Assembly: GCF_902497555.1 (NCBI RefSeq)
Contig: NZ_CABVGP010000001.1
Location: 1-64,000, forward strand
Length of the DNA stretch: 64,000 nucleotides
From: Amycolatopsis camponoti
GTDB lineage: Bacteria > Actinomycetota > Actinomycetes > Mycobacteriales > Pseudonocardiaceae
Direction of reading: 5' to 3'
Every line of letters starts with the position of its first letter. Within the stretch, counting starts at the first letter, position 1. The position numbers were made by a program, and so were the translations under genes. The notes beneath the pieces were generated by a model. It had not been told where the DNA came from. It saw only the letters and a program-made list of their open reading frames with translations, and did no database searches. Of this stretch, positions 22,575 to 38,270 are shown piece after piece.

Positions 22575-22634
22575 GGCCGCGGTCGACCTCACTTGAGGGG
22601 GTTTCGGCCCGCTGTCGCTGCCAGCCTCGCGGGC

Positions 22635-23429
22635 ATGTCTTGCATGACCCGCCGCTTGGAGCAGTCGATTGCCGCTCGCTGGCGTACTCGGACGGCCGGT
22701 GACGGTGGACGAGCGCGCAACTGGCAGACCCGCCTCGGCTACTACGAAGCTCTCGACGCCGCGCTGGAGCGGAACGGCTCGCCCGACATCGACGTCAACG
22801 ACATCGTGCGGGCGCACCGGAACGGAAAGTTGTCGACCGCGTACGCCATCGTGACCAACGGTGGCCTGGCGCGGTTCTACCGCACCGAGCAGATACCCCC
22901 CGACCGGCGGCGGATCGCCGACTTCGTTCCCGAGTCACCGATCCACCAGTTGCTCGCCGAAACGAAGGTCTGGAGCTTCTGGCCGGGCCGCGAAGCGTGG
23001 CTGCGGGAACTGGACGAGCGGTTTCCGACAGCGCCGTTCCGGACCGCGGCGCAACGGCTCGCGCAGGTGCTCGCCGGGTGGCGGGAGCGGCATCCCCTGC
23101 TTGCCGCGACCCAGGGCGGGCTCCCGCCGCTCTGCGCGATCGAAGACCTGGTGATCCTCGGCCGCGGCGCCCTGTCCGCCGCTCGGGCGGTGGAACTCCT
23201 GCTCGGGGCCGGCCCAGCGGGTGAGCTCGAGTTCCCCCAGGAACTCGGGTGCGGACAGGTGCCGGTCCTGAATCACTCCGCGATCGACGACATCGCGACC
23301 CGGCTCGACACCGCCATCGGCCTGCTCGGTGCGGGTGACGGGACTCGGTTCGCGATGGGGCTGCTCACCTCGGCCCGTCGCGACTTGGCGGCCCTGCGCC
23401 GGGGCGGGACGCGGTCGCACCCCGGCTGA
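22635..23429 (+). CDS. Unknown protein convergent on the CHAT gene
   Basis: 264 residues, soluble and helical, Trp- and Arg-rich. A segment RLGYYEALDAALERNG, then VNDIVRAHRNGKLSTAYAIV, looks helix-turn-helix-like; the C-terminus is alpha-helical (LDTAIGLLGAGDGTRFAMGL). No catalytic motif. ATG 22635 is chosen; ATG 22644 is also possible, and neither has a strong Shine-Dalgarno. It converges with seven bases on the CHAT gene and may be a regulator or accessory factor of that system (inference). Family not recognised. Confidence 0.65.
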   Translation: MSCMTRRLEQSIAARWRTRTAGDGGRARNWQTRLGYYEALDAALERNGSPDIDVNDIVRAHRNGKLSTAYAIVTNGGLARFYRTEQIPPDRRRIADFVPESPIHQLLAETKVWSFWPGREAWLRELDERFPTAPFRTAAQRLAQVLAGWRERHPLLAATQGGLPPLCAIEDLVILGRGALSAARAVELLLGAGPAGELEFPQELGCGQVPVLNHSAIDDIATRLDTAIGLLGAGDGTRFAMGLLTSARRDLAALRRGGTRSHPG

Positions 23430-23436
23430 GCCGGAT

Positions 23437-26400
23437 TCACCTTCCGTGGCAGGCGAACGCCGCCCAGACGGTGACCTCGGTCAGGTCGCACTCCTCGAGG
23501 TCGCCGAGCATCGCCTCCGGCATTTCCGGGAGCTCGGCCCGGCCGGCGTCGAGCATCCAGAGCTGTGCCGAACGCAGCGCGTGGGCGGGATCTTGCGCTT
23601 CGCGGGCGAGGAAGTGGTGGAAGGCGAACATCGCGGCGGCGGTGGCCTGGTCGTCGACGGGCCACCGGGACCCGACCACGGTCACCGCACCCGCCGCGAC
23701 GAACGCCGTGGCCAAGGTCAGCGCTTCGTCGTAGTCCTGTTCGGTCAGGTCGCTGAGGCAGGTCGACAGGACGACGAGCGGACCCGGGGTGTCGGCGGCG
23801 CGGCCCGCCGCGTGCTCGAGCACGGCCTTGATGGTCAGCTGCCGGGTGAGCTCGAGGTACGACGCCTCGACCGCGCCCGCGTTGCGCGCGTGGCACGCCA
23901 GGTGCAGCATCGACGCGCCGAGGGAACGGTCACCCGGCAGGTTCGCGAGCACCTCTTCCGGCGTTCCGATCCCGGTGGCCGGTGCATCGCCGCCTTCGGG
24001 CGGGGTGAAAGCGGACAGATCACCGAAGATCTTGGCGTCGGGGTAGAAGGCGTCGCGCAGGGAGATCACTTCGTCGGCCGCGAACGTCAGGTCGCCGAGG
24101 GGCTCGGTCACCAGGACCGGTTCCAGGTGGAGGGGCAGCGCGGCCCGGGACGCCGTGTCCAAGAACTGGCGCGCCGACGCGGCGCTCGAGAGCACGAACT
24201 CCTCGATGGCGGGCCGGCCGTCGAGGAGGCGGGCCGCGGGCCACGGCACGACGCCGAGGACACCGCTCGGCACCAGCACGACCCGCGCCGGGCGCCGCTG
24301 CGTGCAGAGTGCGGCCCGCAGCGGTTCGAAGACCGCCTCGCCGGCCCAAGTGCACACGTCGGCGATGGCCGCGGCCCTGGCGTCCTTGTCCTTCGCGCCG
24401 ACGACGCGGGAGAAGCGTTCAGGCGGACCACCGGGCTGGATTCGCAGGGCCGGCGCGGGCACCGCGGTGGGTACGCCGTCCTGGTCGACGACCAGCAGGC
24501 AGCCGTCGCGGTCGCCGGCTCCGGGCAGGAGGTACACGAGAGCGTCCGCGCCCACGGCGGTGAGCGCGTCGGCGATTTCGGCGGGCGCGGGCGGCGTGAA
24601 GAGCCGGCCGCCTTCGGTTGTGCCGCGCAGCACGGCCAGCACCTTGTGCCGCAGATCGGTGGCGGCTCGCGCGTGGTCGGGCTCGCCCGCGCCGGCCGGG
24701 TCGCCCGTCGCCGCCCACGGCGCGGGTTCGTCCCGCCGCGCCGCGGAGTCGGCTTCCCACGCCGCGGCCAGGTCGGACCGGCCGATCCGGCGCAGCAGGC
24801 CGGAGACGGCGAGCGCGGAGGTGGCAGCGTGCAGGGCCAGTCCCCGGCCCAGTTCGACGGCTTGCACGGCGCCCGCGATCTCGCCGTCGTCGAGGCACCA
24901 GGCCGCCAGGGCGGCGGCTTCGGCCGTGGCTCCCCGGGCGGTCACGACGGCGTGCCCGACACCGGTCTGCAGCAGCACCGTGCCGGCGTGCACCGCGAGC
25001 GCTTCGAACGCCGTGCGCCGGGCCGGTTCGAGGTCGCCGCGCTTGCGGTAGGCGTGGGCGAGCTCCCGGAGGACGTCGGCCATCGCCACGCCCGCCCGGT
25101 GCCGCTCGAGGGTCTGCCGGGCGCCCTCGAGGTGGTCGACCGCGCGGTCCGCGGCGACCTCCGGGTCGACTCCCGCGTCGTGGGCGGCGAGGTACGCCTT
25201 CGCCAGCAGCGCCTGCTGTCCCGCCTGCTGGACGGAGGCGGCCGCGGCGGCCGCGACCTGCTGTTCCATCCGGTTGATGCCGTTCACCATCGCCGCGGCG
25301 TCGGCGGTCATCAGGCCGTCGAGGACCTCGACCGTGTCCGACATGGTCGCGATCACGCCTTCGGGGATGCCGGGGAACCTGCCGCCGGTCAAGAGGCCGC
25401 GCAGACCGCCCAGCCCGGCCCGGATGTCGCCTCCGTCCGACGTCGCCAGCCGCAGCTTCGCGAGGGTCAGCACGAGCTCGGCGTTCGGGCGCATGACGTG
25501 CTGGGCGGGAAGCCGGTCCAGGCTGTCCCCCAGGGTGGCCGCGGCGGCACGCACGCTGCCGTCGTCCTTCGCTCCCAAGGCCTGGATGACGCGGCTGACC
25601 GCGGCGAGGCACGACAGAAAAGCGGCCGAGCCGTCGTCGTCGTCGGCCGCGACCGCGCTGGTCGCGCGATCCAGCAGGTGCCGCGCGGCTTCGGCGTCCT
25701 CGACCAGGCCCTCCCGCAGATGACGGTCGGACAGCAGCGCGGCCAGCTGCCCCACGGCCGCCGGCCGGAGATCGTGGCCGGCGGGCAGCACTTCGAGCGC
25801 TTCGACGAGGTCCTCGAACGCCTGCTCGGGATGGTCCTCGCCGTCGGCGTGGCCGCGTAGCAACCCGACCATCGAGCGGAGGAACAGCTCGGGCCCCGCG
25901 ACGGTGGATCCGCTGTCGCGAGCTTGGGCCAGCACCTGCGCGGCGACCTGCTCGGCCCGCGCCAGGCTGTCCTCGGTGGCGTCGGCCGCGGCTGACGCGA
26001 CGAGCGCTCCCGCCAGGGTTCGCACCGTTTCGCCGTAGAACGGGTGGTCTTCGGGCATGCCGGCCGCGGCCTGCTCCATCAGCTGCGTGACGCGCGCCAG
26101 CCCCTCGGGGCCGTGCTGGTCACTGCGTTTGACGAGCGCCTGCGCGAGGTCACGCCGGAGTATCGGGGTGAGGAGGTGGTCTTCGCTCAGGCCGGTGAGG
26201 GCTTCTTCGAGCTCGGCGATCCGGCCGGGTGCGGGCGTCGGCCGCAGCCACGCCTCCGTGGCCCGGAGCAGATCGAGCCCGGGCATGGCCGGGGTGGCCT
26301 GACCGACGGCCTGGGCCAGCACCTCCGCCGCGTCGGGCTCGTCCGCTCCGGAGCCGAGCAGGGGCGCGAGGGTGCGGAAGACTTCGAGGCTGGCTCGCAG

Positions 26401-26829
26401 GTCGGGGGGCAGGGACTCGAGATCGTGGACGTCGGCGATGGCGGTCAGGACGTCGGCGATCCCGGTCTCGACCGCGTCGGGATCGGCGTCGCGCCGCCAC
26501 TTCTCGGTCTCGCGCAGCAGGTCCATGTCCGGCTTCCAGCTCCGGCCACGCAGCGCGTGGGCCACGGTGCCCCGGCCGATCCGGAGGGCCACCCGGGCCA
26601 CCGAGGCCTGCTGCCGCTGCTCCGCGGTGGCGTCCGCGTCCGCGAGCACCGAGCTCAGGATCTCGTCCGCACGCGAGCAGTCCGTCTCCACGCCCTGGTG
26701 CTCGATGTAGCGGGAGCTGAGCCCCGCGGCCAGCTTCATGCGCACGGACCGGGTTTCGGGATCATCCGCGGCGGAGCCGGTCAGCACCTCTTCGAGCTCG
26801 GCGATGCGTCTGTCCAGGTCTTCAGGCAT
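23437..26829 (-). CDS. Large helical-repeat CHAT-domain (caspase-like) protease
   Basis: 1130 residues. The first ~700 are alpha-helical, rich in Ala/Leu/Asp/Glu with tetratricopeptide-like spacing. The C-terminal CHAT domain holds the caspase-type dyad: His near residue 980 in LHLACHARNAG and Cys near residue 1024 in VVLSTCLSD. Downstream VVGSRWPVDDQATAAAMFAF is typical of CHAT domains. CHAT proteases are executors in several conflict systems; the repeat region is likely a sensor or substrate platform. The gene overlaps the upstream FHA gene by eight bases. Last gene of the leftward operon. Confidence 0.9.
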   Translation of the reverse strand: MPEDLDRRIAELEEVLTGSAADDPETRSVRMKLAAGLSSRYIEHQGVETDCSRADEILSSVLADADATAEQRQQASVARVALRIGRGTVAHALRGRSWKPDMDLLRETEKWRRDADPDAVETGIADVLTAIADVHDLESLPPDLRASLEVFRTLAPLLGSGADEPDAAEVLAQAVGQATPAMPGLDLLRATEAWLRPTPAPGRIAELEEALTGLSEDHLLTPILRRDLAQALVKRSDQHGPEGLARVTQLMEQAAAGMPEDHPFYGETVRTLAGALVASAAADATEDSLARAEQVAAQVLAQARDSGSTVAGPELFLRSMVGLLRGHADGEDHPEQAFEDLVEALEVLPAGHDLRPAAVGQLAALLSDRHLREGLVEDAEAARHLLDRATSAVAADDDDGSAAFLSCLAAVSRVIQALGAKDDGSVRAAAATLGDSLDRLPAQHVMRPNAELVLTLAKLRLATSDGGDIRAGLGGLRGLLTGGRFPGIPEGVIATMSDTVEVLDGLMTADAAAMVNGINRMEQQVAAAAAASVQQAGQQALLAKAYLAAHDAGVDPEVAADRAVDHLEGARQTLERHRAGVAMADVLRELAHAYRKRGDLEPARRTAFEALAVHAGTVLLQTGVGHAVVTARGATAEAAALAAWCLDDGEIAGAVQAVELGRGLALHAATSALAVSGLLRRIGRSDLAAAWEADSAARRDEPAPWAATGDPAGAGEPDHARAATDLRHKVLAVLRGTTEGGRLFTPPAPAEIADALTAVGADALVYLLPGAGDRDGCLLVVDQDGVPTAVPAPALRIQPGGPPERFSRVVGAKDKDARAAAIADVCTWAGEAVFEPLRAALCTQRRPARVVLVPSGVLGVVPWPAARLLDGRPAIEEFVLSSAASARQFLDTASRAALPLHLEPVLVTEPLGDLTFAADEVISLRDAFYPDAKIFGDLSAFTPPEGGDAPATGIGTPEEVLANLPGDRSLGASMLHLACHARNAGAVEASYLELTRQLTIKAVLEHAAGRAADTPGPLVVLSTCLSDLTEQDYDEALTLATAFVAAGAVTVVGSRWPVDDQATAAAMFAFHHFLAREAQDPAHALRSAQLWMLDAGRAELPEMPEAMLGDLEECDLTEVTVWAAFACHGR

Positions 26830-27310
26830 CGTGGTCCCCTCGCATCAACTTCACCGTTCCGGTCACGGTCAGGCTGAGCCGGACGGAGTCCTCCTGGCTC
26901 AGGACGTGCTTCTTGCCCGGGGGCAGCGCTTCGCCGTTCACGTGGGTCAGGTTGGTCGCGTAGTGGTCGCTGACCCAGGCCCGCCCGTCCTCGTCCAAGC
27001 CGAACACCGCGTGCCGGCGCGAGACGCTGTCATCGCTTTCGAACAGCTTCGCGTGGGCCGAGAACTCGGGGTCCCGTCCCACCATCGCTTCCGTGCCCGC
27101 CGCGATGGCGACGGTGCCGGTCTTGAAGACGACCCGCAGTTCGCGCACGGCTCGCAGCCGGGTGGTCCGCGGTGCGGGAGCGGCCGGCGCCTCGGAGACG
27201 GCCCCGTCGGCCGTCACCGGGCTGCGGTCCATCGGGCACAGCCCGTTCTCCGGCACGGCGTCGGCGGAGAACCGGTGCCCGTTTTCGCAGAGGTACGTCG
27301 GCTCACTCAT
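26822..27310 (-). CDS. FHA-domain protein with zinc-ribbon-like start
   Basis: 162 residues. Residues ~6-26 contain CENGHRF and CPMD, a half zinc-ribbon look. Residues ~60-150 are an FHA phosphothreonine-binding domain: VGRDPEF, SVSRRHAVFGLDEDG and ATNLTHVNGEAL give the Gly-Arg, Ser-Arg-x-His and Asn signature. It sits between the AAA+ ATPase (overlap of eight bases) and the CHAT gene, so it is a likely adaptor reading phosphothreonine made by the kinase of the same operon. Confidence 0.88.
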   Translation of the reverse strand: MSEPTYLCENGHRFSADAVPENGLCPMDRSPVTADGAVSEAPAAPAPRTTRLRAVRELRVVFKTGTVAIAAGTEAMVGRDPEFSAHAKLFESDDSVSRRHAVFGLDEDGRAWVSDHYATNLTHVNGEALPPGKKHVLSQEDSVRLSLTVTGTVKLMRGDHDA

Positions 27311-29171
27311 CGACGACGAGCTCCAGCGCGGGCGGAGTGCTCCGCTGGTCGAAACCGGACACGGTCACCCGGGTGCCGCGGGGCAGCGGCTCGTCGAACA
27401 ACGCGCGGGCGAGCGGGTTCACGAGCCGCGCTTCCACCTGGTTGCCGATCCCGCGGCCACCGAAGGTCAGGTCGGTCGTGCAGTCCTTCTTGAGCGCGCC
27501 CGTGACCCACTCCGCGAGTTCGACGGACACGCCGTGCTCCGCGGCGACCAGGTTCCGCACGTTCGCGACCTGGCCGAAGAAGATCATTTCGGCCGCGGCC
27601 TGGCCGATGAAGTCGAAGACGACGATGTTGTCCCCGATCCGGTTGAGCAGCTCCGGGCGCTTGATCTCGTAGCGGAAGTGGTCGGAGATCGCTTCGCGCA
27701 CGGCGACATCGACCTTGTCGAACGCGAGGCCGGGTTCGATCAGGTTGCGCAGCACGCCGGTCTTCGGGTCCTTCTTCTGCACGCCGAGGTTGGACGTGAA
27801 GATCAGGATCGACTCCGAGAAGTAAGCCGTGTCGCCGCGGCCGTCGGTCAGGCGGCCGTCCTCGAGGATCTGGAGGAACTTGTCCAGCACCAAGGGGTGC
27901 GCTTTCTCGATCTCGTCGAAGAGCACGACCCGGAACGGCTGGCGGCGCATGGCGTTCGTCAGCTGGCCGCCCGCGTCGTGGCCGACGTAGCCGGGCGGTG
28001 AGCCGATCAGCCGGTCGGCCGCGTGCGACTCCGAGAACTCGCTCATGTCCAGCCGGAGGAGTGCGCTCTCGTCGCCGTAGACGAGCTGCGCGATGCCCTT
28101 GGCGAGCTCGGTCTTGCCGACCCCGGTCGGTCCGGCGAAGAACAGCACGCCGCGCGGTCGCGTGCCGGGCTTGCCGGTGTGCGCGCCGGAGAGACCCATC
28201 GCCGCCCGCTTGAGGACGTCCAGCGCCTTGGCCACGGCCTGTGGCTGGCCCTTCACCCGCGCTCCCAGGTCGCCGGCGCGTTGCTGTAGCCGCGCCCGCA
28301 GGTGCGACTGGCGCCACGGGTTCTCGATCACGCCGAGCCGGTAGGTGGCGACGCTCTCGGCCAGCCGGTCGAACGGGACGCGGCTTTCCTGGGCGAGCTG
28401 CGCGACCCCGGCCATCGCGTCGAGCGTCATCCCGTGGGACTCGACGGCGAAGGCGTCCACCACCTTCTGTTTCGCTTCCGCGGCAACGGACTCGGCGCCC
28501 TCGTAGTCCTCGATCAGCAAGGCGGCCGCGCGCTGTCGGTCCCCGAGGTCCGGCGGCGGCACCGCGATGCTGCGGACGTGCGCGTTGCCCACGGTGAGCC
28601 AGTTCGGCAGGTCGCCTTCGTTGTCGACGAGCCAGATCACCGGGTTGTAGGGAGCGGCGCCGCCGCGGCGCAAGGCGTTGACCCCGAGCTTGGCGCAGAA
28701 CAGGAAGAAGTCACGCTCTTTCGCCCCGAGGTCGCTGTTGCGGAGGCTGAGGCGGGACGCGTGGGCGAGGACGAACGCGCACCGCTCGCCGGCGCCCACG
28801 ACCGCGCTGATGTCCTGCTGCAGCTCGGTCAGGTCGGGGGTGCGGCCGAGGCCGTTGAGGAGCCGGCCGGCCGCGAGCTTGGCCTTGTCGGCCCCGGGCC
28901 CGGCCGCCGGCCGGACACCGAGCCCGTCGATCTGGTCGTAGGTGAACAGGCAGGTGAAGCCGTTCTCGCGCAGGACTTCCCACAGCAGCGCGGGCAGCGA
29001 CGTGAGCCGGCCGCCGTCGGCGGTCACGAACTGGTCGTGCACGTTGCCGTGGAACACGAACTGGGAGTGCACGGACAGGGTCGTGGCGAACTCGCGCAGC
29101 CAGCCGGGGCTTCCGGCGGCGGAGGGAGCGAGCTCGGGTCCGGTCGCCGGGGCGTGCTCGGTCATGGTCAT
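27303..29171 (-). CDS. ClpB/ClpA-type AAA+ ATPase with degenerate N-terminal ATPase half
   Basis: 622 residues. The C-terminal module is a full AAA_2-type ATPase: Walker A FFAGPTGVGKTELAKGIAQL, Walker B VVLFDEIEKAHPLVLDKFLQ, the conserved SEFSESHAADRLIGSPPGYV and sensor NLGVQKKDP. The first ~300 residues (VHSQFVFHGNVHDQFV, then VIWLVDNEGDLPNWLTVGNA) look like an AAA domain that has lost Walker A. This two-part design, one catalytic and one scaffold ring, points to a specialised remodelling machine, not a housekeeping chaperone. Overlaps its neighbour by four bases (ATGA). Confidence 0.9.
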   Translation of the reverse strand: MTMTEHAPATGPELAPSAAGSPGWLREFATTLSVHSQFVFHGNVHDQFVTADGGRLTSLPALLWEVLRENGFTCLFTYDQIDGLGVRPAAGPGADKAKLAAGRLLNGLGRTPDLTELQQDISAVVGAGERCAFVLAHASRLSLRNSDLGAKERDFFLFCAKLGVNALRRGGAAPYNPVIWLVDNEGDLPNWLTVGNAHVRSIAVPPPDLGDRQRAAALLIEDYEGAESVAAEAKQKVVDAFAVESHGMTLDAMAGVAQLAQESRVPFDRLAESVATYRLGVIENPWRQSHLRARLQQRAGDLGARVKGQPQAVAKALDVLKRAAMGLSGAHTGKPGTRPRGVLFFAGPTGVGKTELAKGIAQLVYGDESALLRLDMSEFSESHAADRLIGSPPGYVGHDAGGQLTNAMRRQPFRVVLFDEIEKAHPLVLDKFLQILEDGRLTDGRGDTAYFSESILIFTSNLGVQKKDPKTGVLRNLIEPGLAFDKVDVAVREAISDHFRYEIKRPELLNRIGDNIVVFDFIGQAAAEMIFFGQVANVRNLVAAEHGVSVELAEWVTGALKKDCTTDLTFGGRGIGNQVEARLVNPLARALFDEPLPRGTRVTVSGFDQRSTPPALELVVDE

Positions 29172-30541: not shown

Positions 30542-32919
30542 GACGGCTGCCTTTCCGGTGTGGCCGCAGGGCCGGTGCTGCTGTTGCGCAGCTCTTCGTG
30601 GTCGTCCTGCCAACGCCGGTACCTGCGGCGCGCCGAACGGAGATGGAGTACGAGAAGCGCCGAAGTGACGAGGTAGGGCGCGGTGAGCAGGATCGCCAGT
30701 GTCGCGGCGGCCGCGGCCGCCACGCCGACGAGCAGGAGGGCCGACCGGACGAGGCCGGCGTCCTTGCCGCCGACGCGGTTCACGGCCCGCAGGAAGATCA
30801 TGATCAGGGAGTACTCGCGGTGGTAGGGAGCGCCGATCAGCGCGGCCAGCCAAACCTCGCACGCCGTCTGCGCGGCCAGCCCGACCGCGACGAAACCCCA
30901 GGCGGTGCTGATCGCGTCGGCGGAAGCGAGCGAGATGGATCTCGGCAGGTTGTCGGCACCCACGAGCAGGCCCGCCATCGCCACGACGACGATGGCCATC
31001 GAGGCCGCCGCCCAGCCCATCGCGGCCGGGCGCTCGATCTCCCGCCACCGCTCCCGGCGGCGCCAGGCGAGGGTGCGGATCGACTCGTCCGCCATCAGCG
31101 ACCGGCGGTGGGCGAGTTCGTCGTCGACGCCCTGCCGGACGTCCGGCGCGAGGAGGTGGAGTATCAGCAGCCCGACGAGCTCCTCGGGCACGGGCTTGGC
31201 GGATCGGCCACGCCGCCGCTCCGGCAGCACCGTGGCGGCCAAGTGCTCGAACATCGGCAGTGGCGCGCCCAGCTGAGCCGAGATGTACTCGCGCAGCCGC
31301 GAAAGATCACCGGACAGCTTCGCCTGGAACGTCCGGTCGACGGCGACCCGCAAGAAGGGCGCCCGCCACTCTTCCTCGGAAATCCGGGTCAAGGGTGCGG
31401 TGTAGGGATTGTCGCTGCGGAGCACCGATATGACGGCCCGGCAGCGGGCCACCAGTTTCCGCCACAGGTCGTCGACGTTCTTCAGCTCCCGGGCCCCCGC
31501 CGCGCCGTCCAGCTCCCTGAACAGGCGCCACCGCCAGAAGTCCTCCGCGAAATCGGCGAACTTCGGATCCTTCCACCGTGCCGCCTGCCGCATCCCGGTC
31601 GGCTCGGCCGGCAGGTCGCGGTACCGGGGGACCAGAGAAGGATCCGCGTGCCGGAGCAGGACGAGCAGCAGTGCGTCGGGGGAGCCGGGGTCCGCGCCGC
31701 TGCCGATCCGGTCGACGTGCTCGATCACCCGGGCGGCGGAGAACCCCGGGCGGCCGTCGAACTGGCTCAGCCAGTCCGCGAGCTCGGCCCAGCGGGGCTC
31801 TTCGGTACCGAAGAGCGCCGCGGCCGCTTCGCTCCAGTGCTTCTGGAGACACTCCATCAGCGCGTGGACGTGCCAGAACTCTTCTCCCGCGAACCTGAAG
31901 GGGCGCACGGAAAGGGCCGGCTCCGGCGGCGGCGCCGAAGTGGGTTCCTGCGCGATCCGCGATCGGACCTGGTCGGCACCCCAACGGTGGTAGTGATCAC
32001 GTGTCGTGAGCCCGCGGAACAGCGGCGCGACGCGTGCGGCCAAGCCGGCCGGTTCGGGGACGTTCCAGGTCGCCAGCTGCCGCCGGATGTTGGGTTCGGA
32101 CAGGTCCCCGAAGGGGTGGCGGCCGGTGGACAACTCGGCCGTGATCATGCCGAGCGACCACCAGTCCGTCTCGGCCGAAACGGAAGCGGACAGCAGTTCC
32201 GGTGCCGTGTAGGGGGTCAGGGGTCGCGAAACCTCCCAGGTGACCCCCTTGTCGAGTGGCTGCGCGAGTCCGAAGTCGACAACGGTCACCTCCCAGCCCG
32301 TGCCGCTTTCGCGAGGGGAAACCAGGACGTTCTCGGGTCGGAGGTCGAGGTGGGCCAACGACACCCGGCCGAGCGCTTCCAGCGCGCCCGCCAGCTGGCC
32401 GACGACGTCCGCGACCGCGTCGTCGGTCAACCCTCCCGGGTGGTCGGCCAGCACGTCGCGCAGGGTCGTCCGGCGCGCGCTCTCCGGCGCGCCGGAGCCG
32501 CCCACCCGGGCGCCGCGGTCGTCCATGATCTCGAACGTCCGCCCGGCGACCTGGCCCGAGGTGTGCAGGCGCACCACGTTCGGCGCTTTGTCCGTGATGC
32601 CCCGCCATGCTTTGTGGACACCGTCGACCGGCCCACGGCCGGGCTTGTACAGCTTGAGGATCCGGTCCGGCGCCTTGCTCTTCCGTCCGTGCCCGACGAG
32701 CGCGACCCGCTCGACTTCGCCGGCGCCTTCGACGTCGATCCAGTGGCGGAGTTCGCAGTCCTTCGGCAACTCCACCGGGTCGGCCGGCGCACGCCCTTCC
32801 GGTTCGCTCTCGGGACGGGTCGTCGGGCGCAGGGCGGCGGGCCTGCCCGCGTCCCTGACGGTCGGCGTCAATGCCGTCATGAATTGCCCGCCGTTCCGTT
32901 GTAGCCAGTTCGTCGGCAT
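30538..32919 (-). CDS. Membrane Ser/Thr protein kinase-like protein
   Basis: 793 residues. The N-terminal ~300 residues are a complete kinase domain: ILKLYKPG (VAIK-equivalent), HLDLRPENVLVSP (catalytic loop), VVDFGLAQPL (DFG), TPYTAPELL and TDWWSLGMI. A helical middle region leads to at least three membrane helices near residues 640-760 (AAASMAIVVVAMAGLLVGAD, TAWGFVAVGLAAQTACEVWL, LLVGVAAAAAATLAILLTAP). No PASTA repeats. It is first in the leftward operon, and the FHA protein nearby could read its products. ATG 32880 is an alternative start. Confidence 0.88.
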   Translation of the reverse strand: MPTNWLQRNGGQFMTALTPTVRDAGRPAALRPTTRPESEPEGRAPADPVELPKDCELRHWIDVEGAGEVERVALVGHGRKSKAPDRILKLYKPGRGPVDGVHKAWRGITDKAPNVVRLHTSGQVAGRTFEIMDDRGARVGGSGAPESARRTTLRDVLADHPGGLTDDAVADVVGQLAGALEALGRVSLAHLDLRPENVLVSPRESGTGWEVTVVDFGLAQPLDKGVTWEVSRPLTPYTAPELLSASVSAETDWWSLGMITAELSTGRHPFGDLSEPNIRRQLATWNVPEPAGLAARVAPLFRGLTTRDHYHRWGADQVRSRIAQEPTSAPPPEPALSVRPFRFAGEEFWHVHALMECLQKHWSEAAAALFGTEEPRWAELADWLSQFDGRPGFSAARVIEHVDRIGSGADPGSPDALLLVLLRHADPSLVPRYRDLPAEPTGMRQAARWKDPKFADFAEDFWRWRLFRELDGAAGARELKNVDDLWRKLVARCRAVISVLRSDNPYTAPLTRISEEEWRAPFLRVAVDRTFQAKLSGDLSRLREYISAQLGAPLPMFEHLAATVLPERRRGRSAKPVPEELVGLLILHLLAPDVRQGVDDELAHRRSLMADESIRTLAWRRRERWREIERPAAMGWAAASMAIVVVAMAGLLVGADNLPRSISLASADAISTAWGFVAVGLAAQTACEVWLAALIGAPYHREYSLIMIFLRAVNRVGGKDAGLVRSALLLVGVAAAAAATLAILLTAPYLVTSALLVLHLRSARRRYRRWQDDHEELRNSSTGPAATPERQPS

Positions 32920-33210
32920 CGAGGTTTACCCGAAGTCGCGCGCCGCTCGCAAGCTACTACACGGTTTTATTCTGATCTGTCGAAAAGCGTAACAGAGTTC
33001 GCCGCCGAGACGAACTGAAGCCCGTACAGCATGCACAGCAGGGATTTCCAGGAGGATGCACCGGTTCGTGGAATCCCCGCCGTGAGCGCGGTGTGGCACC
33101 TACAATGCGGAGGCACATATGCGGAACCCGATGCGGGAGAACGCGTCCTCGTGCTGTCGCGGACCACTGTCCGAGTAAATTCGTGATCATTTCAGGGGTT
33201 GTCGAAGAAC
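32920..33210. promoter_or_regulatory. Divergent promoter region of the kinase and lipoprotein operons
   Basis: About 290 bp with locally lower GC than the surrounding genes. On the minus strand TTACGC and TAAAAC with a 17-base spacer (about 32958-32998) could serve the kinase gene. On the plus strand TAAATT near 33176 may be part of a -10 for the rightward operon. No clear long dyad was found, so a shared operator cannot be pointed to. Confidence 0.4.
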
Positions 33211-33849
33211 ATGATTAAACGCTCTCGAACAGAGGGCTGGCCTGGTGGTTCTCCGCGCAATGCAGTGGTCCGCTTGCGGCATCGCGTCGAGGCTCGGTGG
33301 CAGGCCGCCCGGGACAGCCGATCCGGCGCCTTGCTGACGCTGGAACAGTCCGGCGGGATCACGGTCGCGTCGACGAGGTACGTGTGGAGCCTGCACGCCG
33401 AAGCCGACCGCGCGTCGAACGAAGCCCTCGTGCGGCTGCACACCGACAACGAGCCACTCATCGTCGAGATCCGGAACCGGGCGTGGGCGGTCATCCGCGC
33501 GGAAGAGCTGGGCGCCACGAAGTCGGTGCACCACCGCCGGCTCGGGCACAGCCTCGCCGAATGGGAGACCGTGGCCAGCTGCGCCGCGCACGACGTCGGC
33601 GCGGTGGTGTCGGGCCTGAACCGGATCATCGACCGCTACTGGGCTCGGCTGGCCACCGCCCACCGGGCCTTGCGGTCCGACGGGCCGGCGGCGTCCACGT
33701 CGCCGCTGCAGCCTCGCCGGATCGTGCGTGACGACCGGTGGTCCCGGCCGCTCGACCTGCTCCCGCACCGGTGCAGCCCCAACCCCGCCGTGCCGGCGGC
33801 CGTCATCGACCGCGCCGTCGAAATCGTCGTCTTCGGAGCGACCGCGTGA
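33211..33849 (+). CDS. Unknown protein, first gene of rightward operon
   Basis: 212 residues, soluble, mixed helix and strand (LLTLEQSGGITVASTRYVWS, then IIDRYWARLATAHRAL). No recognised motif. ATG 33211 is taken; a TTG four codons upstream is an alternative. It is divergent from the kinase gene and is followed 31 bases later by the lipoprotein gene. It may belong to the same system, but its own function is open. Confidence 0.65.
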   Translation: MIKRSRTEGWPGGSPRNAVVRLRHRVEARWQAARDSRSGALLTLEQSGGITVASTRYVWSLHAEADRASNEALVRLHTDNEPLIVEIRNRAWAVIRAEELGATKSVHHRRLGHSLAEWETVASCAAHDVGAVVSGLNRIIDRYWARLATAHRALRSDGPAASTSPLQPRRIVRDDRWSRPLDLLPHRCSPNPAVPAAVIDRAVEIVVFGATA

Positions 33850-33880
33850 AACCCGCGGCCCTCCGTCGAAAGGAGACCAG

Positions 33881-34612
33881 ATGACCACCGAACACAGACG
33901 CCGTCGCGGGCGGTACGCGGGTGTTCTGCTCGCCGCGTGCCTCTCGTCGACCCTGTCGGCTTGCGGCAGCGACGGAATCTTCACTGACGACGCGCCGACC
34001 CGGGCCTGCGGGGTCGTCGTCGACGCGTCGGGGTCGGGTGCCGACTTCCACGCGGACGAGCGGATCAAGACGAAGCTCGAGTCCTTCTTGGAGCAGCAGA
34101 GCTGCGGTCAGCTGACGTTCGTCGCCCTGAACAGCCTCAGCGACACGTCGACCTGCAACGAGGAGCGCTTGGACCTCGATCCGAAGGTCGGTGACCCGCA
34201 GGCGGTGCGCGCGGCCCAGCGGCAGGAAGCGGTCACCCGGGCACTGCGGCTGCTGGACTGCGCCCGGAAGGAGTCCCACGACTCGAACGTGCTCGGCGCG
34301 CTGCGCAAGGCCGCCTCGACCCGTCCGAGCGGAACGGGACCGTACGCGGTCCTGGTCATCAGCGACATGGTCCAGGCCGACCGGCGCGTGAACATGCTGA
34401 CCGCGAACATCAGCACGCCGGAGGCGCGCGCGGCGATCATCGACCAGCTGGGTGATCTGACGCCGCACCTGACCGACACCGTCCTCTACCCGACCGACCT
34501 CAGCGCGAACCTTGCCGACCCCAAGCACGGCCTGAACGTCCGCGAGTTCTGGACGGAGCTGTTCGCCACCGACGCGTCCGGCCGGCCGAAGATCGAGATG
34601 AACTATGGCTGA
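33881..34612 (+). CDS. Lipoprotein, predicted vWA-like fold
   Basis: 243 residues. The N-terminus is RRRRGRYAGVLLAACLSSTL followed by the lipobox LSAC, so the mature protein begins at that Cys (residue ~28). The mature part starts ACGVVVDASGSGADF, which resembles the DxSxS (MIDAS-like) start of a von Willebrand A domain but with DASGSG, and continues YAVLVISDMVQADR. It would sit on the outer face of the membrane. AGGAG is five bases ahead of the ATG; overlaps the next gene by eight bases. Confidence 0.75.
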   Translation: MTTEHRRRRGRYAGVLLAACLSSTLSACGSDGIFTDDAPTRACGVVVDASGSGADFHADERIKTKLESFLEQQSCGQLTFVALNSLSDTSTCNEERLDLDPKVGDPQAVRAAQRQEAVTRALRLLDCARKESHDSNVLGALRKAASTRPSGTGPYAVLVISDMVQADRRVNMLTANISTPEARAAIIDQLGDLTPHLTDTVLYPTDLSANLADPKHGLNVREFWTELFATDASGRPKIEMNYG

Positions 34613-35777
34613 GAACCGGAAACGAGCAGGCGCCGCCGAGTCCGAGCTGGTCCGCCGCGGACGGGCTGACGGCACCCGCGCCGCGCGGGCCGGCCAGTAC
34701 GACGAGTGGTCGTTCGAGCAGGAGCAGTCGATCCCGTACGCGCAGCTGCTCGACGCACAGGAGCAGTGCGACGTCACCGAGGAGGCGATCAACCACGAGA
34801 CACGGTTGATGGCTCTCCGGACCGCGCAGGCGGCCCAGACCCGGCAACGGCGGATCGCGCGGGAGGCGGCCGAAGCCGAGATCGGTCAGGCGCGGGGACG
34901 GCTCGCGCGGAACCAGGACCACCGCGAGACGAGCCGGGCCCAGCTCGACCTGCTGACCGGCGTCCACGACCCGATCCCGGAGGACGGGGTGGACCCCGGT
35001 CCGACCGTGCCGGGGCGGTGGATCGGGCCGGCGGACGGACAGCTGAGCCCGGTGGTGCCACCCCTGCTGAAGTACGTCCTGATGGTCCTGCTCGCCGTCG
35101 TCGAGGTTCCCATCTACTTCTCGACGTTCCGCGCGTTCGACCCCCGGAACTTCGCCCTGGTCTGGTGTTTCACCATTCCGGTTGCGCTGTGCATGGTGCT
35201 GGCGCCGCACCTGTCCGGGCTGTGGCTGCGAAAACGGCTGGCCAAGCCGTCGATCGGGATCGTCCCGACGGTGGCTTCGGGCGTCTTGATGACGGCGTGG
35301 TTCGGTGCCGCGGTGCTCCTCGCCAAGCTGCGCAGCACGACGCTGGTGCAGCCGCTGTTCCTGAACGGGCACCGCATCGAGAGCCCGGTGAGCAACCTCG
35401 GGCCGACGACCCTGCTGGCGACGTTCGGTCTCGTCATCGTCGTGTCCGGTCTCCTCTCGTTCCTGCTCGGCATCGCCGACAACCACCCCGCGGTCAGTGC
35501 GTTCGCCCGCGCCGACCGGGGGCTCCGGCAGGCGGAGGAGGCGAACCTGAAGGCCGTCAGGACCCACGCGTCCGTGCTGATCGAAGACGCCGAAGAGCCC
35601 GAAGTGTCTCCGGAGGAGAGCCTGACCTTGGAACACGAGAAGCGACTCGAGGTGCTCCAAGCCGACTACGCCGCGGCCTGGGCCGCCTACCGGGACGCCT
35701 GGTCCCTCGCCGCCGGGAACCCGTCGAGGACGCAGGCCGCCGGTTCGGCCGCTCCGCACACCGGGGTGCGGGTGTGA
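34605..35777 (+). CDS. Coiled-coil membrane protein of the rightward operon
   Basis: 390 residues. Residues ~1-130 form a charged coiled coil (EEAINHETRLMALRTAQAAQ, RQRRIAREAAEAEIGQARGR), residues ~150-310 contain at least four membrane helices (YVLMVLLAVVEVPIYFSTF, VWCFTIPVALCMVLAPHLSG, VASGVLMTAWFGAAVLLAK, LLATFGLVIVVSGLLSFLLG), and the C-terminus is another coiled coil. It is probably an oligomeric membrane scaffold linking the lipoprotein outside to the cytosolic components. Overlaps the radical-SAM gene by four bases (GTGA). Confidence 0.78.
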   Translation: MAENRKRAGAAESELVRRGRADGTRAARAGQYDEWSFEQEQSIPYAQLLDAQEQCDVTEEAINHETRLMALRTAQAAQTRQRRIAREAAEAEIGQARGRLARNQDHRETSRAQLDLLTGVHDPIPEDGVDPGPTVPGRWIGPADGQLSPVVPPLLKYVLMVLLAVVEVPIYFSTFRAFDPRNFALVWCFTIPVALCMVLAPHLSGLWLRKRLAKPSIGIVPTVASGVLMTAWFGAAVLLAKLRSTTLVQPLFLNGHRIESPVSNLGPTTLLATFGLVIVVSGLLSFLLGIADNHPAVSAFARADRGLRQAEEANLKAVRTHASVLIEDAEEPEVSPEESLTLEHEKRLEVLQADYAAAWAAYRDAWSLAAGNPSRTQAAGSAAPHTGVRV

Positions 35778-36451
35778 CGCCGGCGACCGTGGTCCGGCTG
35801 GAGCGGCTCCACTACCCCGTCACGGCCCTCGGCCCCGGGCGGCGGCTGGGTCTGTGGGTGCAGGGGTGCTCGCTGGCCTGCCCGGGCTGTATGTCCCAGC
35901 ACACGTGGGACCCGTCCGGTGGCCGCGAGACGACCGTCGCGGCTGTGGGAGACGCCTGGCGGGAGGCCCTCGACGACGGTGCGGACGGCGTGACGATCTC
36001 CGGCGGCGAACCCCTGCAGCAGGCCGGGATCGTGAGCCTGCTCGCGGCGCTGGCCGAAGCTCGGGACCGGGCCCGCCCGGAGGCGGACATCCTGCTCTAC
36101 ACCGGATACACGACTCGTGAGGCCGAGCTCCGGGAGCCCGCGGCGCTGGCCTTCGCCGACGCGGTGATCACCGGGCGGTACGCGCGGGCCCGGCCGACCC
36201 GGCTGATCTGGCGGGGCTCGGCCAACCAGCGGCTGGTCCCGCTGACGGCGCTGGGCCGGCGCCGGTACGAGCCCTACCTCGATGCCCAGCCCGCACAACC
36301 CCCGATCCAGGTCGGCCAGGACGGCGACGACGTCTGGTTGATCGGCGTCCCCCGTTCCGGCGATCTGGCGAAGCTCGGGCACGCCGTGCGGGACTCGGGC
36401 ATCGGGTTCACCGAAACGACCTGGTCCAGAGAGGAACACACCCGTGGTTGA
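35774..36451 (+). CDS. Radical-SAM 4Fe-4S activase-like protein
   Basis: 225 residues. The cluster motif is CSLACPGCMSQ (CxxxCxxC), with GVTISGGEPLQQ (SAM-binding GGE) after it and a short TIM-like remainder, the size of NrdG/PflA-type activases. No glycyl-radical enzyme gene is near, so its target is probably another protein of this operon or a metabolite. GTG start overlapping the previous stop (GTGA), and the gene overlaps the following gene, so it is firmly embedded in the operon. Confidence 0.87.
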   Translation: MTPATVVRLERLHYPVTALGPGRRLGLWVQGCSLACPGCMSQHTWDPSGGRETTVAAVGDAWREALDDGADGVTISGGEPLQQAGIVSLLAALAEARDRARPEADILLYTGYTTREAELREPAALAFADAVITGRYARARPTRLIWRGSANQRLVPLTALGRRRYEPYLDAQPAQPPIQVGQDGDDVWLIGVPRSGDLAKLGHAVRDSGIGFTETTWSREEHTRG

Positions 36452-37565
36452 AATCCCCGTCGAGGCGCTGCCCGACGAAGTCCTCGCCCAAGTCGACCTC
36501 GTCGCGAAGGGCGCGGGTGACCGCAGCGAGCTGGGCGGAGAGAGGCGCTTCGGCGGCGTGGTGCTGCGGAAGCCGCTGCTCTACCCCGCCCGTCCCGACG
36601 ACCTGCCGGCGCCGGCCCGAAGGCGTGCCGACCAGGGAACGACCCAGCTCCTGGGGTTTCTCGCCGCGGTCGAGCTGGAGCCGCTGCGGCGGGGACGGAC
36701 CTACGGCGCGGTCGAGCTGGAAGTCACGCTGCCGGAGTCCTGCCGGATCGTCGCGTTCCCGGGTGGTGAGCCGGACGTCGTGGGTCTGCACGGGAACGTC
36801 TTCGGCCGGACCGTCAAGACCATGGACGGGTCGGGCCTGGTGGTGCACGTCATCGTGGAAGCGCCGCGTGAGCTGCTCGAACTCGCCGGCCAGGTGCGGT
36901 GCAGTGCCCAGATCTGCCGGTCGGTGGGCAAGCTCGTGCACATCGTCCAGACGGAGACGGAGAAGTCCGCGCCGTTCGCCGAGCGCGTCGCGAGCGGCCG
37001 CGCCGTGCGATTGGTGGTCGCCGCCGACGTCCACGCGTACAGCGGGCGGGATGCCGGAGGCACGGAACGCGCCCAGGACCGGCTCGCGACGGTGCTGGAC
37101 CGGGCCAGCCGCGCCACGGGTTCGGAGCTCGAGGACCGGCAGGAGGGCGGCGACTCGTTCATGGTCGTCTTCCCGCCCGGTATCGACGAACGAGCCGTCC
37201 TGGTCGCCTTCTACTCCGAGCTGGCGTCCGGCCTTCGCGAGGCCAACGTCGATCTCAGCGCCGACGCCGCGATGCGCCTGCGCGTCGGGGCGGACCGGGG
37301 CCTGACCCTGCGCGGAGCCAGTGGGTGGGTGGGCCACGGGCCCATCACGGCGGCCCGGCTGCGCGATTGCCGTCAGGCTCGAGATGTGCTCCGGGGCGAC
37401 GCCGGCGTTCCCTTCGTCTTCGCCGTTTCCGACTGCCTGTACCGGGACGTCTTCAGCGAGCGAGGTCTGGTGCCCACGCCCGCTTCGTTCACCTCGGCGG
37501 AGGTGGACATGCCCGAGAAGGGATTCACCGCGAAGGCGTGGATCCACGCCGGTGCCGCGAGCTGA
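36444..37565 (+). CDS. Nucleotide-cyclase-homology protein of the rightward operon
   Basis: 373 residues, GTG start overlapping the radical-SAM gene. The C-terminal half resembles a class III nucleotide cyclase homology domain: VVAADVHAYSGRDAGGTERA (start of the domain with a metal-type Asp), EDRQEGGDSFMVVFPPG (the GD hairpin), and MRLRVGADRGLTLRG. The N-terminal ~170 residues are an unrecognised beta-rich region. Whether it is catalytic is unclear, because both metal Asp positions and the purine-binding residues cannot be confirmed by eye. A Crp/Fnr gene follows in convergent orientation. Confidence 0.7.
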   Translation: MVEIPVEALPDEVLAQVDLVAKGAGDRSELGGERRFGGVVLRKPLLYPARPDDLPAPARRRADQGTTQLLGFLAAVELEPLRRGRTYGAVELEVTLPESCRIVAFPGGEPDVVGLHGNVFGRTVKTMDGSGLVVHVIVEAPRELLELAGQVRCSAQICRSVGKLVHIVQTETEKSAPFAERVASGRAVRLVVAADVHAYSGRDAGGTERAQDRLATVLDRASRATGSELEDRQEGGDSFMVVFPPGIDERAVLVAFYSELASGLREANVDLSADAAMRLRVGADRGLTLRGASGWVGHGPITAARLRDCRQARDVLRGDAGVPFVFAVSDCLYRDVFSERGLVPTPASFTSAEVDMPEKGFTAKAWIHAGAAS

Positions 37566-38270
37566 TCAGAAACCGGCGAGCTCGTCGAGCCGCCGCTCGT
37601 CGAGGATCCGGATCCACCGGTAGCCGGTCTCGGCGATCTCTTCTTCCCGCATCGACGTGAGAACGCGCTGGATGGTCGCTTCGGTCGCGCCGGCCAAGGC
37701 GGCGAGCTCCGGCTGGGCCAGCGCGATCTCGATGAGGACCCCGCGCTCGTTCCGGGTTCCGTGCGCCGCCGCGAGCTCCCGCAGCACGCGCGCCGCCCGG
37801 ACGGGCGCGGGGAAGGTCGCGAACTCCACCCGACGGCGGGTGGCGGACCGCAGCTTCGCGGCCATGGCCCGGGAAGCGGCCCGGTTGGCGTCCGGGTGGG
37901 TCCGGAGGATCGCGTGGTAGTCGCGTTCTCCGAGCCGGAGGCACTCTCCGCGAGCGGCGGCCCGGACGCTCGCACTGCGCGGCTCGCCGTCCGCGATCCC
38001 CAGTTCCCCCACGAGGTCGCCGCCGACGCGGATGGCGAGCAGGGCCTCGCGTCCGGTTTCGGTGAGGCCGACGACCTTGTAGAGGCCGGACAGCAGGATG
38101 ACCGCGGAATCGGAACGCGCGCCTTCGTGGATCACGGTCTCCCCCGCGGAGCACTGCCGGCGCGTGCCCCGGCGCAGGATGGCGGCGCGAGTCCCGGGAG
38201 TGAGCTGGCCGAAGAAGCCGGTGGACGGCCACGCGTGTCCGGCGGACTCCGCGTTCGGGTTCGTTGCCAT
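37566..38270 (-). CDS. Crp/Fnr-family transcriptional regulator
   Basis: 234 residues. Cyclic-nucleotide-binding beta-roll with the phosphate-binding cassette GELGIADGEPRSASVRAAAR, retaining Glu and Arg that bind cAMP/cGMP. A long helix and C-terminal HTH follow (IALAQPELAALAGATEATIQ, RVLTSMREEEI). ATG 38270 (MATNPNAES) is used. It is directly convergent with the cyclase-homology gene (no gap), and upstream it is divergent from the patatin gene. Cyclic-nucleotide control of one of the flanking operons is a reasonable inference. Confidence 0.9.
   Translation of the reverse strand: MATNPNAESAGHAWPSTGFFGQLTPGTRAAILRRGTRRQCSAGETVIHEGARSDSAVILLSGLYKVVGLTETGREALLAIRVGGDLVGELGIADGEPRSASVRAAARGECLRLGERDYHAILRTHPDANRAASRAMAAKLRSATRRRVEFATFPAPVRAARVLRELAAAHGTRNERGVLIEIALAQPELAALAGATEATIQRVLTSMREEEIAETGYRWIRILDERRLDELAGF

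What the first reader, a model, noticed from the sequence alone, without database searches (positions are those of the whole stretch)
22635..38270. Multi-component kinase-FHA-AAA+-CHAT protease system with a radical-SAM and cyclase-homology partner operon
Two divergent operons sharing one promoter region hold a membrane Ser/Thr kinase, an unknown protein, a ClpB-like ATPase, an FHA protein and a CHAT caspase-like protease on one side, and a lipoprotein, coiled-coil membrane protein, radical-SAM enzyme and cyclase-homology protein on the other, with a Crp/Fnr gene at the end. Kinase plus FHA suggests phospho-dependent switching, the ATPase remodels a substrate, and the CHAT protease is a known executor type. 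Lipoprotein and membrane coiled coil could sense the envelope. I know the component families from conflict systems but not this combination as a named system.
Basis: partly seen in the sequence, partly recalled or inferred. Interest (0 to 1): 0.85.

Follow-up and report, generated by a model that had tools for sequence, protein, structure and literature searches.

The report
Kinase-gated, effector-swapping bacterial defence-like island
A 15.8 kb block of genes inserted in this soil bacterium carries a membrane kinase, a phospho-reader, a protein-unfolding motor, a radical enzyme and a caspase-like protease that look like one switchable, probably immune or cell-death, machine found patchily in actinomycetes, whose killing part appears to be swapped between relatives.

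Summary
The two divergent operons are real and form one unit. Window 22576 to about 38376 is an inserted 15.8 kb block: its flanking genes lie 65-1625 bp apart in 24 of 24 Amycolatopsis loci. An Actinoplanes contig keeps ten of the twelve genes, ending before the other two. Distant relatives carry genes of both operons on one strand. Among 29 loci picked by a strong radical-SAM match, AAA+, kinase and FHA are each found in 28; CHAT in 17. Single relatives have Peptidase_C14 or TIR instead; in a Rhizobium plasmid the kinase is fused to a helicase-nuclease. Loci with the membrane coiled-coil protein also carry a lipoprotein, in relatives with an OmpA domain. Kinase tails carry threonine motifs T-x-x-D/E, 35 against 8.4 by shuffling and, in a test written down beforehand, 50 against 15.6 in fresh loci, like the FHA ligand pTxxD. 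Best reading: the kinase marks its tail, FHA docks, the AAA+ acts, an effector is released. Defence or altruistic death is likely but untested; the radical SAM chemistry is unknown. Eight literature searches found no description of this set.

The parts
22576..38376 (.). inserted block holding the whole system
   Evidence: DUF445-to-patatin distance 65-1625 bp in 24 of 24 fetched Amycolatopsis loci; in 3 of 8 loci aligned by blastn (L164, L180, L186) the two window flanks are 4-8 bases apart
22635..23429 (+). G22635, 264-aa protein without Pfam match
   Evidence: Actinoplanes homologue 33% over 193 aa, there on the same strand as CHAT
23437..26829 (-). 1130-aa protein with C-terminal CHAT caspase-fold protease, His-Cys dyad present
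   Evidence: Pfam CHAT 118.3 bits, cut-off 24; HLACH at 976, STC at 1022
26822..27310 (-). FHA protein, 162 aa, N-terminus zinc-ribbon-like by eye
   Evidence: Pfam FHA 41.9 bits; Arg, Ser, His kept in 10 of 10 aligned rows; zinc-ribbon-type Pfam match only in the Actinoplanes homologue
27303..29171 (-). ClpB-D2-type AAA+ ATPase with family-specific N-terminal part, 622 aa
   Evidence: Pfam AAA_2 160 bits; Walker A, GYVG, RPELLNR; generic ClpB-like controls at most 257 bits, members next to the radical SAM gene 341-1110
29168..30541 (-). protein of unknown family with one N-terminal hydrophobic stretch, 457 aa
   Evidence: no Pfam match (longer frame); homologues in 15 of 29 loci
30538..32919 (-). 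Ser/Thr kinase with C-terminal membrane stretches, 793 aa
   Evidence: Pfam Pkinase 76.5 bits; ILKLYK, HLDLRPEN, DFG and hydrophobic stretches 631-659, 676-695, 720-760
32842..32862 (-). kinase-tail motif TVRDAGR, putative FHA docking site (one copy here)
32920..33210 (.). divergent intergenic region
   Evidence: no sigma-70 consensus site; imperfect 13-nt inverted repeat 33034-33084
33211..33849 (+). R0, 212-aa protein of unknown family
   Evidence: weak homologue at the same place in Actinoplanes, 23% over 112 aa
33881..34612 (+). lipoprotein with von Willebrand A fold and DxSxS motif, 243 aa
34605..35777 (+). coiled-coil protein with four hydrophobic stretches, 390 aa
   Evidence: 11 proteins at E <= 1e-3, its own included (7994 candidates scored)
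35774..36451 (+). NrdG-like radical SAM protein, 225 aa, CX3CX2C
   Evidence: TIGR02491 100.8 bits, below cut-off 126.1; CSLACPGC
36444..37565 (+). beta-rich domain plus class III cyclase-fold domain, 373 aa
   Evidence: Foldseek 4wp8 E 2.7e-7, TM to target 0.65-0.76 in the top 15 rows; D195 and D237 invariant in 14 rows
37566..38270 (-). Crp/Fnr-type regulator inside the block
   Evidence: Pfam cNMP_binding and HTH_Crp_2 (longer frame); not found in the 24 relatives' loci; a 33% homologue lies on the Actinoplanes contig, at another place

Best explanation
It is a horizontally acquired, phosphorylation-gated effector system of the biological-conflict kind. Proposed steps: (1) an envelope or infection signal, read here perhaps by the vWA lipoprotein and the membrane coiled-coil protein, activates the membrane kinase [inferred; lipoprotein and membrane protein occur together]; (2) the kinase phosphorylates threonines in its own N-terminal tail, whose motifs are tandemly repeated in relatives [motif shown, phosphorylation inferred]; (3) the FHA protein binds the phosphorylated tail and brings in the ClpB-type AAA+ ATPase, with the unknown protein as scaffold [inferred from constant linkage]; (4) the ATPase threads or remodels a guarded partner, possibly one altered by the radical SAM enzyme, so that the effector is let loose [inferred]; (5) here the effector is the CHAT protease, with the cyclase-fold protein as a possible nucleotide branch [inferred]. 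The outcome would be growth arrest or death of the infected or damaged cell.
For: One unit: among 29 loci with a radical SAM score of 160 bits or more, AAA+, kinase and FHA are each in 28 (L090 lacks AAA+ and FHA because its contig ends inside the kinase gene, L152 lacks a recognised kinase). Effectors: CHAT in the fetched flanks of 17 of 29 against about 0.013 expected per 20 kb, from 51 CHAT matches in ten system-bearing genomes of about 80 Mb; one Peptidase_C14 (L090) and one TIR (L147); kinase-helicase-nuclease fusion in L201, matching PADLOC PDC-S37 (9e-139), Hhe (8e-65), MkoA (2e-46). Tail motif: 35 against 8.4 in ten kinases, 50 against 15.6 in 18 fresh ones. FHA Arg, Ser, His kept in 10 of 10 rows. 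PP2C-type phosphatase genes between FHA and kinase in L237 and L239. Accessory: empty site, membrane protein in 3 of 80 genus genomes, all of the divergent type.
Against: No function was measured. The window kinase has one clear motif copy and its own shuffle test is weak (285 of 2000 shuffles reach two T..[DE]; 27 of 2000 reach one T..[DE][PA]G); L147 is weak too (299 of 2000). Four of 18 fresh tails have none or one T..[DE] and carry TVQQG (L237-239) or T-x-D (L249) repeats. Tail limits were set by hand. C14 and TIR are single cases and could be chance neighbours. For ten neighbour proteins of nine fresh loci Pfam named no effector domain, so in many loci without CHAT the effector is unknown. 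L153 lies beside an FtsK/SpoIIIE ATPase, which could mean secretion. PADLOC gives the window proteins only partial matches to kinase, AAA+ and CHAT models.
Confidence: 0.5

Rival explanations
1. A phospho-regulated secretion or envelope machine: lipoprotein, membrane kinase, FHA and a ClpB/ClpV-like ATPase work as in the threonine phosphorylation pathway of type VI secretion or in kinase- and FHA-bearing type VII variants, and the CHAT protein is a processing protease.
For: Similar part list: PpkA kinase and Fha in T6SS (PMC3953482, abstract read; ClpV and the lipoprotein recalled), T7SS variants with kinase, PP2C and FHA (PMC11217815, passages read). Relative L153 has kinase, PP2C, FHA, AAA+ and radical SAM beside an FtsK/SpoIIIE ATPase. 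Lipoproteins with an OmpA domain precede the kinase in relatives.
Against: None of the 12 island genes matches a secretion component in Pfam. Where other effectors were named in relatives they are TIR, caspase and nuclease types. The rest of the genome could not be searched.
Confidence: 0.15
2. An envelope-stress or developmental signalling system: the kinase-FHA switch controls proteolysis and a cyclic-nucleotide branch (cyclase-fold protein, Crp/Fnr) as ordinary physiology, without killing.
For: Membrane kinase, vWA lipoprotein, cyclase-fold protein and Crp/Fnr gene in one block; lipoprotein constantly paired with the membrane protein in the collinear relatives.
Against: Patchy, inserted and associated with differing toxic-type proteins, unusual for core physiology; the cyclase-fold protein is missing from all 29 loci.
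Confidence: 0.2
3. The radical SAM enzyme matures a peptide or radical enzyme, and the rest is its delivery or quality control (a maturation system rather than a switch).
For: The radical SAM family is NrdG-like and constantly linked to the AAA+; Kaur et al. propose peptide modification by a radical SAM domain in one type of FtsH ternary system (PMC7159879, section 21 read).
Against: No glycyl-radical enzyme was matched among the 12 island genes; short peptide genes were not searched for. It would not explain the kinase tail repeats.
Confidence: 0.1
4. Two unrelated operons that happen to be neighbours.
For: Divergent transcription; R0, the cyclase-fold protein and the window-type lipoprotein are not part of the wider family.
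Against: The same divergent pair in Actinoplanes at 23-58% identity; radical SAM and membrane-protein genes collinear with kinase, AAA+ and FHA in distant relatives.
Confidence: 0.02

Closest known systems
FtsH ternary conflict systems (Kaur et al. 2020, PMC7159879)
   Same: AAA+ protein, vWA domain, a radical SAM enzyme in one type, a caspase-like effector in the other, presence in multicellular actinobacteria (section 21 read)
   Different: Here the ATPase is ClpB-D2/AAA_2 type, not FtsH; no MoxR gene was recognised; the centre is a membrane kinase with a threonine-motif tail and an FHA protein, which that section does not describe
Threonine phosphorylation pathway of type VI secretion (PpkA-Fha)
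   Same: Ser/Thr kinase and FHA reader of phosphothreonine (abstract); ClpB/ClpV-like ATPase and lipoprotein (recalled)
   Different: no secretion genes recognised in the island; radical SAM, CHAT and cyclase-fold proteins have no counterpart that I know of
Kinase-bearing phage-defence proteins (Mokosh MkoA, Hhe, MADS MAD6, PD-T4-6, PDC-S37)
   Same: kinase domain; in the L201 relative the kinase is fused to a helicase-nuclease part that PADLOC models as PDC-S37, Hhe and MkoA
   Different: window kinase is far below the MAD6 cut-off (60.5 against 460 bits) and has no helicase
Csx29 and other TPR-CHAT proteases
   Same: long N-terminal region followed by a CHAT protease domain
   Different: NCBIfam Csx29 20 bits against cut-off 300; no CRISPR genes among the island genes
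GarA/OdhI phospho-switches of actinobacteria (mechanism recalled)
   Same: kinase plus small FHA protein
   Different: here the threonine motifs sit in the kinase's own tail; the FHA protein is far below the OdhI and FhaB cut-offs

Membership tests
FtsH ternary conflict system | FtsH-type AAA+ pair | tested here: not met
   Pfam AAA_2 and weak ClpB_D2-small, no FtsH-specific match; NCBIfam best ClpB
FtsH ternary conflict system | MoxR plus vWA pair | tested here: not met
   no MoxR gene among the 12 island genes; a vWA fold is present but as a lipoprotein
CHAT protease family | CHAT profile over cut-off and His-Cys dyad | tested here: met
   118.3 bits against 24; dyad aligned
FHA domain family | profile over cut-off, pThr-binding Arg, Ser, His (residues recalled) | tested here: met
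   41.9 bits against 20.7
Ser/Thr protein kinase | catalytic Lys, HxD, DFG | tested here: met
   ILKLYK, HLDLRPEN, DFGLA
ClpB disaggregase | full-length two-ring ClpB over cut-off | tested here: not met
   249 bits against 1232, D2 part only
NrdG activase | equivalog score over cut-off | tested here: not met
   100.8 against 126.1
Radical SAM superfamily | CX3CX2C cluster motif and profile match | tested here: met
   CSLACPGC; Fer4_12 99.9 bits, cut-off 22 (longer frame)
Class III nucleotide cyclase | cyclase fold | tested here: met
   Foldseek E 2.7e-7
Class III nucleotide cyclase | complete catalytic set | tested here: inconclusive
   both presumed metal Asp kept in 14 rows; the usual transition-state Asn is not seen in the motif (recalled, judged by eye)
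von Willebrand A domain | VWA fold and metal-site DxSxS | tested here: met
Mokosh / Hhe / PDC-S37 | helicase-nuclease core | tested here: not met
   absent from the window genes; present in the L201 relative
MADS defence system | MAD6 kinase over cut-off | tested here: not met
   60.5 against 460 bits
Type VI / type VII secretion | secretion core genes with the kinase-FHA pair | tested here: inconclusive
   none in the island; rest of the genome not available
Anti-phage defence system | measured protection from phage | not testable with these tools
   needs an experiment

The most novel reading that the evidence does not exclude
A new class of bacterial immune machine in which a membrane kinase, wired to an envelope lipoprotein and a membrane coiled-coil protein, writes phosphothreonines on its own repeat tail, an FHA adaptor reads it, and a ClpB-type motor together with a radical SAM enzyme converts this into release of an interchangeable effector (CHAT or caspase protease, TIR, or helicase-nuclease). 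Tail motif and FHA reader have co-diverged, so that each system is insulated from its paralogues.
Probability: 0.35. Interest if true: 0.88.

Novelty: new variant of a known kind. Interest (0 to 1): 0.75.

Why it matters
Regulatory cores with changing effectors have repeatedly turned out to be immune systems (general knowledge). This one would add two features not described together in the papers found: radical SAM chemistry as a constant partner of a ClpB-type motor, and a kinase that carries its own phospho-reader docking tail. The tail motifs make a direct prediction about which FHA protein binds which kinase, and the lipoprotein pairing points to where to look for the signal. It would also link CHAT proteases of actinomycetes to a defined switch.

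Tried and rejected
Chance adjacency was rejected by synteny. Housekeeping was rejected by the empty site and patchy spread. The AAA+ search of viral contigs kept 80 generic ClpB-like loci, none with the radical SAM gene; they served as a score control. A plasmid search with the kinase found nothing at E 1e-20; with the radical SAM eight records. Profile searches for a vWA match of the lipoprotein gave nothing in PDB sequences and one weak Pfam hit among 13 members; Foldseek gave no match under 1e-3; only the structural re-alignment gave clear VWA rows. A relation of the unknown protein to coiled-coil proteins of the plasmids and of L153 is only suggested (hhalign probability 34 and 67; no support between L153 and the plasmid ones alone). 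No promoter consensus was found in the divergent gap. Ten neighbour proteins of nine fresh loci (L240-L244, L246-L249; seven of these loci without a CHAT match over 80 bits) gave TPR repeats in one and nothing in nine; L245 was not examined. Of 18 loci first fetched around radical SAM hits (L088-L090, L145-L159), 9 had the AAA+; L090 was cut by the contig end; the other eight have 119 bits or less and are probably other activases.

Rows left out of counts: the 29 loci are those with radical SAM 160 bits or more among fetched stretches; window and L087 are not in the 29; the three plasmids (156-159 bits), L149, L151 and L153 (110 bits or less) are below the line. Four of the 27 genomes (G669, G163, G841, G857) have weak matches (130 bits or less); of these only G163 was fetched (L148, no AAA+). 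A second, weak match in G782 was not fetched. Kinases L243 and L245 were left out of the fresh tail count because no start was set for them; by eye they carry TRRD three times and TRHE three times. L086/L091 was a marginal hit without the system.
Full report
What is there. Two divergent gene runs are separated by 291 bp. Leftward from 32919: membrane Ser/Thr kinase, a protein of unknown family, ClpB-D2-type AAA+ ATPase, FHA protein, CHAT protease. Rightward from 33211: R0 (unknown family), vWA-fold lipoprotein, coiled-coil protein with four hydrophobic stretches, NrdG-like radical SAM protein, cyclase-fold protein. A Crp/Fnr gene (37566-38270, minus strand) and G22635 (22635-23429) close the two ends. 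Seven neighbouring pairs overlap by 4 or 8 bases, so translational coupling is likely (inference). The strain is probably an Amycolatopsis: the cyclase-fold protein is 99% identical to one from Amycolatopsis sp. NPDC005961.

Catalytic residues. The kinase keeps ILKLYK, HLDLRPEN and DFG; the AAA+ keeps Walker A, GYVG and RPELLNR; the FHA keeps Arg, Ser and His; the CHAT keeps HLACH and STC; the radical SAM keeps CSLACPGC. Of ten CHAT rows aligned, eight keep the dyad; the two that do not (L092b, L196a) stand beside an intact copy. Of ten kinases checked by pattern, nine show Lys and HxD; L146 shows neither. The cyclase-fold protein keeps D195 and D237 in all 14 rows.

One inserted block. DUF445 (window 21339-22574) is found in 80 of 80 genomes of one genus. 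In 24 of 24 fetched loci it is followed by the patatin-like gene at 65-1625 bp, where the window has 15.8 kb. In three of eight loci aligned by blastn the window flanks, ending at 22570-22588 and resuming at 38368-38379, are only 4-8 bases apart; in the other five about 0.4-1.5 kb of other sequence lies between, in L176 an HxlR-like and an oxidoreductase-like gene (by eye). Neither the Crp/Fnr protein nor G22635 was found in the 24 loci at 1e-10, so both probably came with the block. No recombinase was matched among the 12 genes.

One system. The membrane coiled-coil protein has 11 hits at 1e-3, its own included, among the 7994 candidates scored from 5.8 billion proteins. A two-pattern scan of the 84,980-genome collection gave one locus, Actinoplanes sp. 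RD1. There the contig keeps kinase, unknown, AAA+, FHA and CHAT one way and R0, lipoprotein and membrane protein the other; homologues of G22635 and Crp also lie on it, in other positions or orientation, and it ends before the place of the radical SAM and cyclase genes (identities 23-58%). Eleven more distant loci (L088, L089, L196, L197, L230-L236) carry kinase, unknown, AAA+, FHA, membrane protein and radical SAM on one strand. Recounted with filters off in 29 loci with a radical SAM score of 160 bits or more: AAA+ 28, kinase 28, FHA 28, unknown protein 15, CHAT over 80 bits 17; membrane protein 13, of which L249 is weak at 22 bits; cyclase-fold protein, R0 and G22635 none. L090 lacks AAA+ and FHA because its contig ends inside the kinase gene; L152 lacks a recognised kinase. 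The FHA of L237 is confirmed by Pfam (43.9 bits).

Lipoproteins. The window-type lipoprotein was found at full strength only in Actinoplanes; four of the 29 loci gave 15-21 bits. Three of these hits (L232, L234, L235) are proteins just before the kinase with a lipobox, no DxSxS motif and an OmpA domain (37.6-45.5 bits, cut-off 27.2). A profile of these three finds relatives (397 bits or more) in all eleven collinear loci and a weaker one in L249 (110 bits), and none of this strength in the other 17 loci. So loci with the membrane protein, L090 apart, also have such a gene. Whether the window lipoprotein and these are true homologues is not settled by 15-21 bits.

Control for the AAA+ family. 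AAA+ proteins next to the radical SAM gene score 341-1110 bits (four were used to build the profile; the others reach 1016); the best frames of 80 generic ClpB-like viral loci reach at most 257 (median 216), and none of those loci has the radical SAM gene.

Spread. Radical SAM matches at 1e-28 or better: 27 of 376 genomes in one family, 23 of them with 178 bits or more. At 1e-15: 25 of 348 in the order and 23 of 296 in the phylum, many of them weak; of the weak ones fetched most lack the AAA+. In the genus, 3 of 80 carry a divergent membrane protein. Outside the phylum, two Rhizobium plasmids and one Caballeronia plasmid carry AAA+, radical SAM and a kinase frame of about 2100 aa in a row (L200, L201, L203). 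L201, examined further, is on a plasmid typed as conjugative; its kinase is fused to helicase and nuclease domains and matches PADLOC PDC-S37, Hhe and MkoA. A Geminocystis plasmid has a radical SAM match about 4 kb from an annotated anti-phage dCTP deaminase.

Effectors. CHAT proteins stand in the fetched flanks of 17 of 29 loci. Ten system-bearing genomes have 51 CHAT matches in about 80 Mb (a few are split pieces, some are the system's own), so about 0.013 are expected per 20 kb; some loci were read over up to about 58 kb. L090 has a Peptidase_C14 protein within 2 kb of the radical SAM gene, on the other strand, and L147 a TIR protein just before the kinase; these are single cases. Ten neighbour proteins of nine fresh loci gave no effector domain.

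Kinase tail. In ten system kinases the tail before the kinase core (limits set by hand) has 35 T-x-x-[DE] against a shuffle mean of 8.4 (highest of 2000: 20); T-x-x-[DE]-[PA]-G occurs 19 times against 0.25 (highest 3). I wrote down the prediction of two or more copies before fetching new loci. Of 20 fresh kinases 18 were scored: 14 have two or more; total 50 against 15.6 (highest 28). The exceptions carry other threonine repeats: TVQQG-type three to four times (L237-L239; their FHA proteins score only 21-28 bits against the family profile, and L237 and L239 have a PP2C gene between FHA and kinase) and T-x-D (L249). Rad53 FHA1 binds pTxxD (title of a reference listed in PMC3146460, passage seen). 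The window kinase has one clear copy, TVRDAGR. That the kinase phosphorylates these sites and FHA reads them is inference.

Mechanism and doubts. The set suggests kinase activation at the membrane, tail phosphorylation, FHA docking, AAA+ action, effector release. The radical SAM step is unexplained: it scores below the NrdG cut-off and no radical enzyme partner was matched. Defence is favoured because of insertion, patchiness, effector changes and the L201 link; secretion control and stress signalling remain open (L153: kinase, PP2C, FHA, AAA+ and radical SAM next to an FtsK/SpoIIIE ATPase).

Literature. Of ten searches of open full texts, eight aimed at this gene set and the listings showed no paper on it; preprints and most subscription papers are not held. 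The other two sought FHA and T6SS background. Kaur et al. 2020 (PMC7159879; passages and section 21 read) is the nearest. PMC11217815 (passages) and PMC3953482 (abstract) give the secretion parallels.

Noticed in passing
window 20132-21334: Protein with Abi_alpha domain (PF14337, 130 bits) next to DUF445; homologues stand beside DUF445 in the six loci whose fetched stretch reached that far (of 24), so it is probably core genome rather than island.
   Followed up: partly
window 22575/38376; L176: The site between DUF445 and the patatin gene holds other sequence in some relatives (L176: HxlR-like and oxidoreductase-like genes by eye), so it may be a hot spot.
   Followed up: partly
L201 10187-20283 (Rhizobium leguminosarum plasmid typed conjugative): Four genes in a row: AAA+, radical SAM, kinase-helicase-nuclease fusion, protein of unknown family; looks like a defence system of its own.
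   Followed up: partly
L237, L238, L239: System variant with TVQQG-type repeats in the kinase tail; PP2C gene between FHA and kinase confirmed by Pfam in L237 and L239, by eye in L238.
   Followed up: partly
L092 5895-10124, L196 445-3561: Second CHAT copies beside the system without the His-Cys dyad; possible regulators or decoys.
   Followed up: no
L153: Cluster with kinase, PP2C, FHA, AAA+, radical SAM and an FtsK/SpoIIIE-type ATPase in a 3.4 Mb genome; may be a secretion variant with this core.
   Followed up: partly
L146 11300-13645: Kinase with eight T-x-x-D/E motifs in its tail but without the usual Lys and HxD in the pattern check; possibly a pseudokinase.
   Followed up: no
L232 17537-19081, L234 17724-18929, L235 17732-19252: Lipobox proteins with an OmpA domain just before the kinase; relatives in all eleven collinear loci; possible wall-anchored sensors.
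   Followed up: partly
L145 491-2611: Kinase domain fused to a glycosyl hydrolase family 3 domain near the cluster.
   Followed up: no
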